Source: Alphaproteobacteria bacterium
GTDB taxonomy: Bacteria; Pseudomonadota; Alphaproteobacteria; Rhodospirillales; WMHbin7
Direction: 5' to 3'
Assembly (NCBI GenBank): GCA_015231795.1
Contig: JADGAX010000001.1
Span: 124,001-188,000, forward strand
DNA: 64,000 nucleotides
Shown piece by piece: positions 9,638-13,793 of the stretch (positions are counted from its first letter, which is position 1; every line of letters begins with the position of its first letter). The position numbers were made by a program, and so were the translations under genes. The notes beneath the pieces are model-generated. The model did not search any database. It worked only from the letters and a program-made list of their open reading frames with translations, and was not told the DNA's origin.

Positions 9638-10794
9638 ACCAGCCCTTGCGCTTCTTTTTGATCGCGGGCGAGCCATCGGGCGATTTTCTGGCTTCCAGAC
9701 TGATGCTGGCCTTGCAGAGTGCTTCGGATGGTCGGGCCTCGTTTGCGGGCGTGGGTGGCGAGAATATGGCGGCCCAGGGGCTGCAAAGCCTGTTTCCCAT
9801 CGCCGACCTGTCCGTGATGGGGCTGGTCGAGGTTCTGCCGCGTCTGCCCCTGATCTTGAAGCGCCTCGATCAAACCCTGGCCGCCATCGAACGCTTTCAG
9901 CCCCATGCCGTGATCACCGTCGATTCCTGGGGCTTTACCGGGCGCGTCGCCCGCGCCCTTTACAAGCAAGGATCGCGCATTCCCCGCATTCATTATGTGG
10001 CGCCTATGGTCTGGGCCTGGAAGGAAATCCGCGCCAAGGGGGTTGCCCGTTACGTCAATCGCCTGCTGGCCTTGTTTCCGCACGAGCTTCCCTATTTCCA
10101 GCGTCATGGGTTGGATACGATCTGCGTTGGCCATCCGGTGATCGAAAGCGGGGCCGATGCGGGCGACGCCGAGGCATTTCGCAGCCGCCACGGCATCGGG
10201 CGCGATGTGCCGCTTTTGGCCGTGCTGCCGGGCAGTCGCATGGGCGAGGTGAAGCGCCTGCTGCCGGTGTTCGAACAGGCGGTGAAACTGATCGCCAAGC
10301 GCCATCCTGGCCTGACCGTGCTGGTGCCAACGGTCGATACCGTGGCGGGGCCGGTGGCTTCGTCCGTCGCCGATTGGTCTGTTCCCACGCTGGTCCTGCG
10401 CGGCACGCAAGAAAAGTATGACGCCTTCGCGGCGGCCAGGGCGGCCATGGCGGCATCGGGCACGGTAGCGCTGGAATTGGCCATGGCGCGCCTTCCCCAT
10501 GTCGTGGCCTATAAGCTGAACCCCATCACCGTGATGGCGGCCAGGAGATTGTTCAAGATACCCTATGTCAATCTGTCGAACATTTTGCTGGAACGTTTGG
10601 CGGTGCCCGAACTGCTACAGGAAGAATGCACGCCGGATCGATTGTCCGGCGAGGTGCTGGCCCTGATGGCGGATGGCGAACGGCGCCAGAGCCAGATACA
10701 GGATTTGGATGAAGCCATGCGCCGCCTGGGACTGGGAGGGTCGTCGCCCAGCCAGCGTGCGGCGCAAGCCGTTTTGGAGATGATCAAGCCATGA
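9634..10794 (+). CDS. lpxB: Lipid-A-disaccharide synthase
   Basis: GT19 glycosyltransferase that joins lipid X to UDP-diacylglucosamine, forming the lipid A disaccharide at the inner membrane. The 386 residues open with FLIAGEPSGDFLAS, then GVGGENMAAQGL, HYVAPMVWAWKEIRAKG and LLAVLPGSRMGEV, all family motifs. The C-terminal half has SGTVALELAMARLPHVVAYK and IPYVNLSNILL. It overlaps lpxI upstream and gloA downstream by four bases each (ATGA), a tightly coupled run. Confidence 0.96.
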   Translation: MNQPLRFFLIAGEPSGDFLASRLMLALQSASDGRASFAGVGGENMAAQGLQSLFPIADLSVMGLVEVLPRLPLILKRLDQTLAAIERFQPHAVITVDSWGFTGRVARALYKQGSRIPRIHYVAPMVWAWKEIRAKGVARYVNRLLALFPHELPYFQRHGLDTICVGHPVIESGADAGDAEAFRSRHGIGRDVPLLAVLPGSRMGEVKRLLPVFEQAVKLIAKRHPGLTVLVPTVDTVAGPVASSVADWSVPTLVLRGTQEKYDAFAAARAAMAASGTVALELAMARLPHVVAYKLNPITVMAARRLFKIPYVNLSNILLERLAVPELLQEECTPDRLSGEVLALMADGERRQSQIQDLDEAMRRLGLGGSSPSQRAAQAVLEMIKP

Positions 10795-11183
10795 GCCAGT
10801 TTCGATTCCTGCACGCCATGATCCGCGTTTTCGATCTGGATGCGTCGCTCGATTTCTACACGCGCCATCTTGGCATGTCGCTGCTGCGCAAATCGGATTA
10901 CCCCGAGGGACGTTTCACCCTGGCCTTCGTGGGCTATGGCGACGAGGGGGCCAACACCGTGCTGGAGCTGACGCATAATTGGGATCAGAAGGAACCCTAC
11001 GCCATCGGCTCGGGCTTTGGGCATCTGGCCCTGGGGGTTGCCGATATCTACGCCGTCTGCGAGCGATTGTCGGCGGCAGGTGTCAAGATCGTTCGCGCTC
11101 CGGGTCCGATGAAGCATGGCAAAACCGTGATCGCCTTCATCGAAGACCCCGACGGCTACAAGATCGAACTGATCGAGCGGTAG
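10791..11183 (+). CDS. gloA: Lactoylglutathione lyase (glyoxalase I)
   Basis: Detoxifies methylglyoxal: it isomerises the glutathione hemithioacetal to S-lactoylglutathione. The 130 residues form a VOC-fold enzyme with all four metal ligands in place at His8, Glu59, His78 and Glu126, the same spacing as in E. coli GloA. It overlaps the lpxB end by ATGA, an unusual partner for the lipid A operon. The last 97 bases of the gene and the 3 bases after its stop form one copy of a 100-base direct repeat; the other copy is at 11807-11906 (see the remnant entry). Confidence 0.95.
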   Translation: MSQFRFLHAMIRVFDLDASLDFYTRHLGMSLLRKSDYPEGRFTLAFVGYGDEGANTVLELTHNWDQKEPYAIGSGFGHLALGVADIYAVCERLSAAGVKIVRAPGPMKHGKTVIAFIEDPDGYKIELIER

Positions 11184-11186
11184 GGT
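11087..11186 (+). repeat. 100-bp direct repeat, copy 1 (gloA 3' end)
   Basis: First copy of the direct repeat shared with 11807-11906. The mismatches are single or double bases in three codons (CGC/CGA, AAA/AGC, CGG/CGT). The toxin-antitoxin pair lies between the two copies. Confidence 0.95.
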
Positions 11187-11191
11187 GGGGA

Positions 11192-11455
11192 TTACCCGAT
11201 CAAGCGGTCATAGTCGGCGTGCGACCCGACCCAGAACCAAGTGACGGCCTCGTCATCCCTAAAGCCCAGCGCCCGCCAGTGAATGCCGACACGCGCCGAC
11301 CAAGTGCCATGCTTTTCGGAAACGCATTTGAAGTGCAGGCTTTGATGCCAGGGATCGCTTTGCCATAGCGCATAGGCGCGCATGGCTTGGCGCTGGGCGG
11401 CAAGCGGCAGAGCCTCGTAATGTTGCCAAAAGGTCTTGGTGGTTCTGGAAATCAC
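11192..11455 (-). CDS. RelE/ParE-like toxin of a toxin-antitoxin pair
   Basis: An 87-residue basic protein with the RelE/ParE-type layout: an N-terminal helix (FWQHYEALPLAAQRQAMRAY), then strands with HFKCV, WSARVGIHWRALG and a WFWVGSHADYDRLI ending. This type is often annotated as a cytotoxic repressor of a stability system and is thought to act as an mRNA interferase or gyrase poison; which one cannot be told here. I chose the GTG at 11455, which overlaps the antitoxin stop as GTGA, the classic coupled arrangement. A longer reading from 11545 duplicates antitoxin sequence. It converges on gloA with only 8 bases between stop codons. Confidence 0.75.
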   Translation of the reverse strand: MISRTTKTFWQHYEALPLAAQRQAMRAYALWQSDPWHQSLHFKCVSEKHGTWSARVGIHWRALGFRDDEAVTWFWVGSHADYDRLIG

Positions 11456-11679
11456 CGGGCAGGGCGGTTCGAAGGATCGAAAGAAAACAGCCCGCCCCCT
11501 GCCGCCTCGGCACGCGCCTTCGCCGTCATTTCGCCCAATAAACACTGGGTTTTGGCGAAACGCTCATCCCAACCGCGCTCAATCTCCAACTCGTCAAGCA
11601 ACCGCGCGGCATAAGCCTCCTGCTCGGCCTCGGGCAGTTTGGAAAGTTCGGCGATAGCCTTTTCCAGCATCTTGTTCAT
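11452..11679 (-). CDS. Putative antitoxin partner of the RelE/ParE-like toxin
   Basis: A 75-residue acidic, helical protein ([20 protein letters not shown], then [15 protein letters not shown]) immediately upstream of and overlapping the toxin by a GTGA. Its size, charge and position are those of a type II antitoxin. There is no clear DNA-binding fold in the N-terminal part, so autoregulation is unproven. The C-terminal half ([16 protein letters not shown]) would be the toxin-wrapping tail. The start at 11679 is preferred over 11697 because the family usually begins close to the ELSKLPE helix. Confidence 0.65.
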
Positions 11680-11719
11680 GGCCCGAGCATAGCCCAAACA
11701 CAGGCAAAATAAAAGGGAC

Positions 11720-11903
11720 CCCCACCTTAAAGCGCGCTACACATCTTGATGTCTCCCCCAGGGTGTGCAACTTTTTTGCCAGGGAATTCGCAGGGGCTGG
11801 CGTGATGATCGTTCGAGCTCCGGGTCCGATGAAGCATGGCAGCACCGTGATCGCCTTCATCGAAGACCCCGACGGCTACAAGATCGAACTGATCGAGCGT
11901 TAG
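11720..11903 (+). pseudogene. Truncated second copy of glyoxalase I 3' end
   Basis: Bases 11807-11906 repeat gloA bases 11087-11186 with four mismatches in 100, at an exact offset of 720 bases. The copy keeps the gloA frame and stop ([12 protein letters not shown] at 11901-11903). Further upstream the DNA no longer matches, but the frame still reads a glyoxalase-like stretch (THLDV then AREFAGAGV) with the same 21-residue spacing as in gloA from the metal-binding His to the AGV. The first half of the gene, including His8 and Glu59, is missing, so it cannot be active. The left border is approximate. Confidence 0.7.
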
Positions 11904-11906
11904 GGT
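11807..11906 (+). repeat. 100-bp direct repeat, copy 2 (gloA remnant)
   Basis: Second copy of the repeat at 11087-11186, 96 percent identical, ending three bases past the shared stop codon. Sequence identity stops sharply at both ends. Confidence 0.95.
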
Positions 11907-11929
11907 TTGCTTTTCTTGGTCTGCAGAAG

Positions 11930-13393
11930 CTACTTATGATGATATGTTTTATCTATTTTTAGCTGAGGAATGATCTCACACCATTTATGAAGTTTTGGCT
12001 CTGAACTATTTCTGTCATAAGTGATTGAGTAAATCCCAGGCAATTCCTCACCACGGCGATGGGCAAACATGTAATATTTACCATCATATTCGAGCGGATT
12101 AAAAATATTATCAATTTTATGATATTGTTCATTGTTTCTTGTCCAGCCAAAATTCAGCCAATCAATATTGCTTATGAAATTTGTAACTGAATCCGATTGT
12201 TTCCGTGAATTGTTTTCTTTTATAAAAACAATGTAATTTTGATTAAACCCGCATCCTCTCGATTCACTGGCACTTATTATGCCAATTTTTTCCATTCGCC
12301 CATCATTATCAATATCAGATTCCACAAACATTTTCCCAGAAGGATATATAGATTGCCTCTCCATCTCGTCTCCGTAAATATGGTAAGACTTCTCAAATTT
12401 CATGGAGCGCACTCTGTCTTCTGATGACAAAAATGGGCGATCATATTTTGAAGTTACCCATGGAAGTATTCTAACTTTATTTTCCACAAACGCTTTACAC
12501 ACGTCATGAATATTCTTAGAACTCTGCTTGTACTTCGTTGGGATGGTTGGCTCGAATGTACAAACAGGCCGTGCATTCTCTTTTTCAAACCACGTAATCA
12601 ATTTTCCTGACCAGCCTTCATGTGTTGTCGGATGGACGACAACTGCATCTCCATCAATATTTAGCATTATTCCGTCTGAGAAATAATTGAGATCCTCATT
12701 TTCATATCCCTCTAAGTATCCGTTTTCCCCCGTTGAAAAATAATCTTCAATGTCTGTGCAATCTAAAATATGCTCAGAAAGACTGTTATGCCAGTTTAGC
12801 CGTTGTGCTTTTCTTATGTCGCAAAATCTATAGCCTGAACAAGACCCGCCAGAAATAATGGTAATAAAGTTCCTTGTTTCCCCATTTTTCTTTCTGACTG
12901 GAGTAACTCGGTAAAAGGGCTCTTCGTTGTTTTGATTCTTATGCTCTTCAAGAGCATGGTCCTTTAAGTGCCCAGCATTTGCAACTTTTAGCGCTTTTTT
13001 GCAAATCGCATCGGCCTTAGCGTCAGAAGGTGCCCAAAGATCGATTTGAAATTGAGGGTCTCTTAGCTGTTCAATCTTTCCAGACAGAAAAAGTTCTCTG
13101 CTTCTAGTCCAGTTTCCGATGCAATCTATATTGCCTTTGCACTTCACTTCGCGATTATTTAGCCACACTCGCTGAGCGTTAAGTTGTCGGCTTTGTGCTG
13201 CGGGATTGATGAGCGAAATCAATTTGCGATATTCCTTGCTCATTCTTGCATCAAGGAATCCCAGAATATCCGTATCGCAAATGGTTTTCTCTGTTTCTGT
13301 ATGCGCTTTGTCACAGTCAAACCCAGGCTGATCTGCGATAGCCGAAAAAGAGAAAGCCTGTAAGCACACAATACAACCTAGTATAAATCGCAT
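11930..13393 (-). CDS. Secreted protein with LprI-like (DUF1311) N-terminal domain; function unknown
   Basis: A 487-residue product with a signal peptide (MRFILGCIVC, then AFSFSAIADQ) and a cysteine-bearing domain at about residues 25-100: FDCDKAHTETEKTICD, LDARMSKEYRKLI and RVWLNNREVKC match the LprI/DUF1311 pattern known from lysozyme-inhibitor-like proteins. The remaining 380 residues are unrecognised; they are aromatic-rich, with an acidic DIDNDGRMEK stretch that could bind calcium. The start at 13393 has GGAGAAGG directly upstream; in-frame starts further upstream add no signal peptide. The gene is strikingly AT-rich (AAT, ATA, TTT codons) against a high-GC background, pointing to recent transfer. 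Envelope defence is a guess only. Confidence 0.7.
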   Translation of the reverse strand: MRFILGCIVCLQAFSFSAIADQPGFDCDKAHTETEKTICDTDILGFLDARMSKEYRKLISLINPAAQSRQLNAQRVWLNNREVKCKGNIDCIGNWTRSRELFLSGKIEQLRDPQFQIDLWAPSDAKADAICKKALKVANAGHLKDHALEEHKNQNNEEPFYRVTPVRKKNGETRNFITIISGGSCSGYRFCDIRKAQRLNWHNSLSEHILDCTDIEDYFSTGENGYLEGYENEDLNYFSDGIMLNIDGDAVVVHPTTHEGWSGKLITWFEKENARPVCTFEPTIPTKYKQSSKNIHDVCKAFVENKVRILPWVTSKYDRPFLSSEDRVRSMKFEKSYHIYGDEMERQSIYPSGKMFVESDIDNDGRMEKIGIISASESRGCGFNQNYIVFIKENNSRKQSDSVTNFISNIDWLNFGWTRNNEQYHKIDNIFNPLEYDGKYYMFAHRRGEELPGIYSITYDRNSSEPKLHKWCEIIPQLKIDKTYHHK

Positions 13394-13793
13394 GTCCTTC
13401 TCCAACACGTGCTGCATTCCGCAATAATACATGTAACAATTGGAGTTTCCCATTATATAAGGACTTGATAATGCTAGCGTACGGACCAAGTCTTGATTGT
13501 TTCTTGTTTTCTTGAATCACGGACAAAGCTTCCGAAAGGTTTTAGCTTCAGGCGTATGTGATCCGGCAAGCAGACTTGTACTGTTTGATAAGCTCGTTTC
13601 AAACTCTAGCCGATGGCCCTAGAGAGTCAACAGGCATTTCTCGTATTAAGATATGCGCAGAACATAGCTTATGCATCGGTTGATTTGCATCAGCACCAAT
13701 ACGCGCGCTACCCGGAAACGCTCGCAGGCGGTTCTCAGGATATGATCGAGGACGTGTTGAATCACGCGGCGCGGACGCGGCCTTCGTCGTCGG
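13394..13793. other. Intergenic stretch without a recognised gene
   Basis: About 400 bases of mixed composition upstream of the LprI-like gene and downstream of the gltA side. The first part is AT-rich and presumably holds the LprI gene promoter on the minus strand. A + strand frame beginning with the ATG at 13613 is open but matches nothing I know and lacks a ribosome site. Composition changes gradually from AT-rich to GC-rich here, so the right border of the acquired segment probably lies in this stretch. I see no transposase remnant, tRNA or clear repeat. Confidence 0.5.

What the first reader, a model, noticed from the sequence alone, without database searches (positions are those of the whole stretch)
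11087..11906. Toxin-antitoxin pair nested between two copies of the glyoxalase 3' end
The same 100 bases (96 percent identical) sit at the end of gloA and 720 bases downstream, and a complete RelE/ParE-type toxin-antitoxin pair fills the interval on the other strand. The repeat ends just past the gloA stop codon, so the intact gene is preserved while a copy of its tail is left on the far side. This is what insertion with re-created gene end, or a tandem duplication followed by replacement, would leave. Gene-tail integration is well known for tRNA sites but not for gloA with a bare toxin-antitoxin pair.
Basis: partly seen in the sequence, partly recalled or inferred. Interest (0 to 1): 0.6.

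Follow-up and report, generated by a model that had tools for sequence, protein, structure and literature searches.

The report
Toxin-antitoxin insert duplicating gene ends
A tiny two-gene toxin-antitoxin unit sits behind a housekeeping gene between two copies of that gene's end, and some related units elsewhere sit between copies of other genes' ends, so such bare pairs appear to spread by inserting and copying the landing site.

Summary
gloA's 3' end (112 bp, 93%; core 100 bp, 96%) recurs 720 bp downstream, and a compact ParE-like toxin-antitoxin (TA) operon fills the gap. Four close relatives have the tail once.

Homologous TA modules elsewhere lie between copies of other gene ends (rarA, cobQ, carB, an acetyltransferase, terminators). 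ParE (PF05016) and PIN/VapBC modules do it too (groEL, an acyl-CoA synthetase, comM, ligA). A direct repeat bracketing the module scores 20 or more in 12 of 133 TA loci (11 of 132 counting the shared cobQ insertion once), against 5 of 3665 sham positions, all five explained by gene-internal repeats or a retroelement. At groEL a sister species carries the ~135 bp segment once and no module.

Best reading: insertion with long target duplication. The passages I read describe this for restriction-modification systems; here bare TA operons show it. Inserts measure 552-753 bp in 14 of 15 loci measured. The one here holds no integrase and no repeats at its ends. How the DNA is joined is unknown, and most TA loci (115 of 133) score below 16. 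Site-specific integration and a decayed second gloA are unlikely. New variant of a known kind.

The parts
10791..11183 (+). gloA, intact lactoylglutathione lyase gene (target gene)
   Evidence: TIGR00068 161 bits, cut-off 120; 94 of 100 genomes (host included) have a match at E<=0.001
11075..11186 (+). target copy 1: 3' end of gloA including stop codon
   Evidence: direct repeat, 112 bp 93%, core 11087-11186 96%
11187..11794 (-). insert proper, 608 bp, holds the TA operon and its upstream region
   Evidence: interval between the copies
11192..11455 (-). ParE-like toxin gene (GTG start by homology), stop codon 5 bp from copy 1
   Evidence: PF24732 37.6 bits, cut-off 24.4; ORF; homologues
11452..11679 (-). 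antitoxin gene, 75 aa, overlaps the toxin start
   Evidence: ORF; five homologues 29-64% identical; no Pfam match
11795..11906 (+). target copy 2: duplicated gloA 3' end without the rest of the gene
   Evidence: direct repeat; matches the single gloA tail of G003 at 11795-11899

Best explanation
A bare two-gene type II TA operon (608 bp insert) was inserted at the 3' end of gloA, and the insertion duplicated about 112 bp of the target. An intact gloA remains on one side and a spare tail on the other. The same outcome recurs in this bacterial order with this TA family and with ParE and VapBC modules, at different genes. The process is therefore insertion with long, variable target duplication, the mode described for restriction-modification systems, here seen for TA modules. 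Shown: the duplications, their fit around the modules, the enrichment over sham sites, relatives with a single copy, and a module-free site at groEL. Inferred: that the module is what moves; that the joint arises by repair or template-switching at a staggered or broken target; that TA addiction keeps an insert which its flanking repeats would otherwise delete; that mainly landings which leave the gene working survive.
For: Repeat bracketing the module with score >=20: ParE_like family 7 of 34 (6 of 33 without the window), PF05016 3 of 53, PIN 2 of 46, against 0 of 455, 0 of 607 and 5 of 2603 sham modules; Fisher p 1.1e-14, or 2.2e-13 with the shared cobQ insertion counted once. The five sham hits are tandem repeats in L088 (3) and L128 (1) and the repeats beside a reverse transcriptase in L115 (1). 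Mismatched flank pairs: 0 of 552 reach 16. Duplicated pieces (gene names are mine from Pfam domains and translations): rarA tail 69 bp; cobQ last 33 bp with stop; carB and acetyltransferase 5' ends; acyl-CoA synthetase tail; groEL tail plus terminator; comM tail; ligA tail 51 bp. Of the 18 loci at 16 or more, 15 were measured: the far copy starts 0-30 bp after the toxin stop in 12; insert 552-753 bp in 14, 878 bp in L183. groEL: G003 has the ~135 bp segment once and no module; G000 and G002 have the module between two copies, decayed on opposite sides. No second tail match at E<=0.001 in 12 of 12 other genomes of the rarA genus and 4 of 4 relatives for the acyl-CoA synthetase. gloA: one tail in G001-G004; gloA and the gltA-side sequence 95 bp apart in G001.
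Against: 115 of 133 TA loci score below 16. The modules are not all intact: the toxin frame has an internal stop in L183 and L188, and the L190 match lacks the toxin start. At gloA the copies are not simply derived from each other: copy 2 has an AGC codon shared with G001 and G002 where copy 1 and G003 have AAA, and near its 5' end copy 2 matches G003 better than copy 1 does; allelic exchange or a donor tail is possible. The flank beyond copy 2 is a second insert, so the exact joint cannot be checked there. G002 and G000 share the groEL insert while G003, closer to G000, lacks it: loss in G003 or exchange of the locus. In the cobQ genus the three genomes without a second match are only 67-71% identical, too far for a 33-bp copy to be seen, so they say nothing. 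The right flanks of the acyl-CoA synthetase site do not match those of relatives. At ligA the last residues of the gene are changed. L169 and L262 involve terminators, which can look alike by convergence; L288, L284, L331, L175 and L183 are less clear. No control with non-TA accessory genes was run.
Confidence: 0.75

Rival explanations
1. Homology-assisted uptake: donor DNA carrying gloA plus a TA module recombined by homology in gloA and joined illegitimately inside the recipient's own gloA, leaving the recipient's tail behind. Copy 2 would be the old gene's remnant.
For: Explains why only a tail remains and why the copies carry different alleles (6 differences in 98 columns, AAA against AGC among them; 9 in the 19 columns at the 5' edge).
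Against: Needs the donor already to carry the TA behind the same gene for each of the unrelated targets. No foreign tract is seen: the lpxB-gloA side is 89% and the gltA side 90% identical to G003. It does not explain 5'-end duplications (carB, acetyltransferase) without more steps.
Confidence: 0.15
2. Tandem duplication of gloA followed by decay and replacement by the TA pair.
For: Would leave a tail copy in the same orientation.
Against: No remnant of gloA beyond about 112 bp; no second gloA beside the first among the listed matches of 100 genomes; the same pattern at other genes with a TA module in the gap.
Confidence: 0.04
3. Site-specific integration at a gene 3' end by an integrase acting in trans, like islands at tRNA genes, with the tail as attachment site.
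For: Gene end restored, tail copy at the far side.
Against: Different targets, also 5' ends and terminators; duplicated length 24 to about 135 bp; no integrase gene in the insert.
Confidence: 0.04

Closest known systems
Insertion with long target duplication of restriction-modification systems (Nobusato 2000, Furuta 2010, both unread, as cited in PMC3031569, PMC3874152, PMC1643837)
   Same: Addiction-type genes inserted without their own transposase; long, variable target duplication (order of 100 bp); sites without the insert in relatives.
   Different: The cargo here is type II TA (ParE-like, ParE, VapBC), the insert only about 0.55-0.75 kb, and the targets are mainly gene ends. The passages I read state this mode for RM systems, not for TA.
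Islands integrating at tRNA or other gene 3' ends by a tyrosine recombinase (recalled)
   Same: Gene end preserved and a tail copy left on the far side.
   Different: No integrase, no fixed target, variable duplication length.
TA modules on plasmids, prophages and integrons (PMC3874152 passages) or on transposon-like TIMEs (recalled; PMC4133298 seen only in a search listing)
   Same: TA genes carried to new places.
   Different: No carrier element and no inverted repeats at the module ends here; the duplication is far longer than a usual transposon target duplication (recalled).

Membership tests
Insertion with long target duplication | Insert flanked by direct repeats of target sequence, tens to about 100+ bp, variable | tested here: met
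   24-112 bp by alignment in 15 measured loci, about 135 bp at groEL
Insertion with long target duplication | Close relatives carry the target once, without the insert | tested here: met
   groEL in G003; no second tail match in 12 of 12 others of the rarA genus and 4 of 4 for the acyl-CoA synthetase; gloA tail once in G001-G004. cobQ not informative
Insertion with long target duplication | Insert carries no transposase or integrase | tested here: met
   ORF list of the window and 608-bp insert
Insertion with long target duplication | Cargo is a restriction-modification system (original description) | tested here: not met
   Cargo is type II TA
Insertion with long target duplication | Movement seen in the laboratory | not testable with these tools
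   needs experiment
Site-specific gene-tail integration | Integrase gene and constant attachment site | tested here: not met
   no integrase in the insert; targets differ between loci
Classical transposon | Terminal inverted repeats | tested here: not met
   five inverted-repeat pairs in 10000-13500, none at the module ends; one 17-nt pair (11010-11026/13028-13044) spans it from 160 bp and 1.2 kb away
RelE/ParE superfamily toxin | Sequence match to a curated family | tested here: met
   PF24732 37.6 bits, cut-off 24.4; no NCBIfam match at E<=0.001
RelE/ParE superfamily toxin | Fold | tested here: inconclusive
   model pLDDT 63; Foldseek 0 matches at E<=0.001, best YafQ E 0.29, YoeB, RelK and HigB chains mixed with unrelated folds
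RelE/ParE superfamily toxin | Toxicity neutralised by the partner | not testable with these tools
   needs expression assay

The most novel reading that the evidence does not exclude
Bare type II TA operons of several families are mobile units in their own right: they land at gene ends with duplication of about 30-140 bp of the target, leave the gene working, are held by addiction, and can be removed cleanly by recombination between the two copies. TA pairs and restriction-modification systems would then share one transposase-free route of spread.
Probability: 0.45. Interest if true: 0.8.

Novelty: new variant of a known kind. Interest (0 to 1): 0.62.

Why it matters
How chromosomal TA modules that sit on no visible mobile element get into genomes is an open question (my framing, recalled). 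A recognisable scar (gene-end duplicate plus TA) would give a direct, searchable signature of recent insertion. It would allow dating, mapping of empty sites, and tests of whether addiction protects an insert that its flanking repeats would otherwise delete.

Tried and rejected
Considered and rejected: chance repeat (score 94; sham sites in this window stay below 16); assembly artefact (the gloA copies differ at several positions; the groEL insert is in two species); decayed full paralogue; integrase or transposon.

Led nowhere: a profile search of solved structures gave 0 matches at E<=0.01. The structure model was weak. The toxin has no match in phage records, 3 distant plasmid matches and 4 viral-contig loci. 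Of those 4, L379 has a bracketing repeat (score 32.5) and 3 do not; they are not in the main counts. The promoter scan found no promoter-like site near the module. NHEJ genes were not searched.

Rows left out: of 39 toxin matches in the order, 38 were taken (37 fetched plus the window; G137, the weakest, left out); L176, L192, L195 and L196 were dropped for short flanks, leaving 34. The four further class-level loci were not scored. Of the longer PF05016 list 70 loci were taken and 17 dropped for ambiguous strand, leaving 53. Of the longer PIN list 46 were taken and all scored. L169, L262 and L288 were not in the measurement. There the script found no antitoxin for L187 and L331 and picked a wrong frame for L270, so its antitoxin distances are not used here.

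Full report
WHAT IS THERE. The end of gloA is present twice, 720 bp apart: 11066-11186 and 11786-11906, 90% over 121 bp, 96% over 100 bp, 112 bp at 93% by local alignment. No other match at E<=0.001 was found in the 3.63-Mb host genome. gloA itself is intact. Between the copies, on the opposite strand, lies a two-gene operon: a 75-residue antitoxin (11452-11679) and a toxin (11192-11455) that matches PF24732 ParE_like above its cut-off. By my reading the two genes overlap as GTGA, and the toxin stop lies 5 bp from copy 1. The insert between the copies is 608 bp.

THE SITE IN RELATIVES. The sister species G003 (89% identical DNA) has the gloA tail once and a different small gene in the gap. G001 has gloA followed after 95 bp by the conserved gltA-side sequence. 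G002 and G004 carry other genes there. In the host the module and tail copy are followed by a second foreign piece, an AT-rich ORF (11930-13489, 34-44% GC) with a sub-threshold LprI match, so the joint beyond copy 2 cannot be compared. Among the matches listed for 100 genomes (host included; the list is cut at weak E-values), the only partial second gloA match beside a gloA gene is the host's own. G088 has two gloA genes, on different contigs.

The finding said that the same module in other gene tails, each with a tail duplicate, would support a mobile unit. I compared the homologous modules found by DNA and saw direct repeats bracketing the module at three of them. I then searched 317 genomes of the order with a toxin alignment (39 matches in 33 genomes, host included) and 385 of the class (5 genomes with a match, host included; these further loci not scored). 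I fetched 37 order-level loci and scored the best ungapped direct repeat between a 250-bp window upstream of the antitoxin and 200 bp downstream of the toxin. 34 loci had enough flank. 10 of 34 score 16 or more and 7 of 34 score 20 or more; without the window 9 and 6 of 33. L187 and L188 are one insertion shared by two species (93.5% identical over the locus). Mismatched flank pairs reach 16 in 0 of 552, and sham modules in the same loci in 2 of 455, none reaching 20. More sham modules: 0 of 607 in the window reach 16; of 2603 in 80 other gloA loci, 9 reach 16 and 5 reach 20. These five are tandem repeats (L088 three, L128 one) and repeats beside a reverse transcriptase (L115).

WHAT IS DUPLICATED. 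rarA tail, 69 bp (L165); the last 33 bp of cobQ with its stop codon (L188, L187); the 5' end of an acetyltransferase (L190); the 5' end of carB, three times (L183); terminators (L166, and less surely L169); short or unassigned pieces (L173, L175) (Pfam support; gene names are mine). No second tail match was found in the other 12 of 13 genomes of the rarA genus. In the cobQ genus the other three of five genomes are too diverged (67-71%) for a 33-bp copy to be seen. Not every module is intact: the toxin frame has an internal stop in L183 and L188, and the L190 match lacks the start.

OTHER TA FAMILIES. I meant PF05016 ParE and PIN toxins as controls. Both show the pattern: 6 of 53 ParE loci at 16 or more and 3 at 20 or more, 2 of 46 PIN loci at either threshold. 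The clear cases are an acyl-CoA synthetase tail (L270, far copy at the first base after the toxin stop), groEL (L263), comM (L286) and ligA (L327, 51 bp, 96%, far copy 2 bp after the stop). At groEL the sister species G003 carries the segment from the groEL end through its terminator once, about 135 bp, with no ParDE module. The host and G002 carry the module between two copies; the host's left copy has an internal deletion, and in G002 the right copy is truncated. G003 is closer to the host here than G002 is (97% against 91%), so either G003 lost the module cleanly, as recombination between the repeats would do, or the locus was exchanged. Overall 12 of 133 TA loci against 5 of 3665 sham sites score 20 or more, p 1.1e-14; with the cobQ insertion counted once, 11 of 132, p 2.2e-13. 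A control with non-TA accessory genes was not run, so specificity for TA is not shown.

GEOMETRY. 15 of the 18 loci scoring 16 or more were measured. In 12 of 15 the far copy starts 0-30 bp after the toxin stop, and the insert is 552-753 bp in 14 of 15. The units are trimmed to the TA operon. gloA, rarA, cobQ, the acyl-CoA synthetase and groEL keep a complete gene end next to the module; at ligA the last residues are changed; comM was not compared with a relative; carB and the acetyltransferase have the 5' end copied. The TA reads in either direction relative to the gene (gloA opposed, rarA the same).

HOW IT PROBABLY WORKS. Insertion with long target duplication fits. Shown: duplication, tight fit, single copies in relatives, a module-free site. 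Inferred: joining by repair or template switching at a broken or staggered target; survival mainly of landings that keep the gene working; retention by addiction. Against the simplest form: at gloA the two copies carry different alleles. Copy 2 shares AGC with G001 and G002 where copy 1 and G003 have AAA, so later allelic exchange or a donor tail may be involved. Also, 115 of 133 TA loci score below 16.

WHAT IS KNOWN. Passages of PMC3031569, PMC3874152 and PMC1643837 say that restriction-modification systems insert with long and variable target duplications, citing Nobusato 2000 and Furuta 2010; I read neither, and the second is not held. PMC3874152 describes TA systems as often lying on plasmids, prophages and integrons and as mobile. 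PMC3031569 says that the spread it proposes for RM systems could also hold for TA systems. PMC2654758 (passages) notes that RM systems share addiction and apparent mobility with TA. Searches for TA with long target duplication or long direct repeats (listings and abstract starts only, some lists capped) showed me no paper that reports it for TA. The library holds open-licence papers only, so this is not proof of absence.

VERDICT. Observation confirmed; insertion reading supported and extended to other genes and TA families; site-specific and tandem-duplication readings not supported. A new variant of a known kind, with a searchable scar.

Noticed in passing
L359 (host genome G000:C4:250500-254500), 1389-1917: A second TA insertion in the same genome: ParDE between two copies of the groEL end plus terminator; shared with G002, absent in G003.
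   Followed up: yes
3' side of gloA in G001-G004 (L045-L048): Each relative has something different behind gloA: nothing (G001), a cysteine-containing small protein (G003), a transposase-like ORF (G002), a two-gene pair that looks like VapBC (G004). The names are my reading, no family search.
   Followed up: partly
window 11930-13489, - strand: AT-rich (34-44% GC) 519-aa ORF with a sub-threshold LprI match, directly behind copy 2; no match to it in the sister locus.
   Followed up: partly
L183, 2171-3151: Three copies of the carB 5' end next to carB, with a TA module (toxin frame with an internal stop) between the first two.
   Followed up: partly
L115, 7990-9970: Reverse transcriptase with a pair of about 110-bp repeats (83%), one in a neighbouring ORF: looks to me like a diversity-generating retroelement.
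   Followed up: no
window 11452-11679 and L359 1389-1637: The antitoxins of the two insertions in this genome begin alike (MNKMLEKA) although their toxins belong to different Pfam families; neither antitoxin has a Pfam match.
   Followed up: no
L379 (IMG/VR contig): One of four viral-contig homologues of the toxin has a 46-bp bracketing repeat, score 32.5.
   Followed up: no
G088:C39:461-847 and G088:C3:9783-10166: One relative has two gloA genes on different contigs, each 74% identical to the host's; not at one locus.
   Followed up: no
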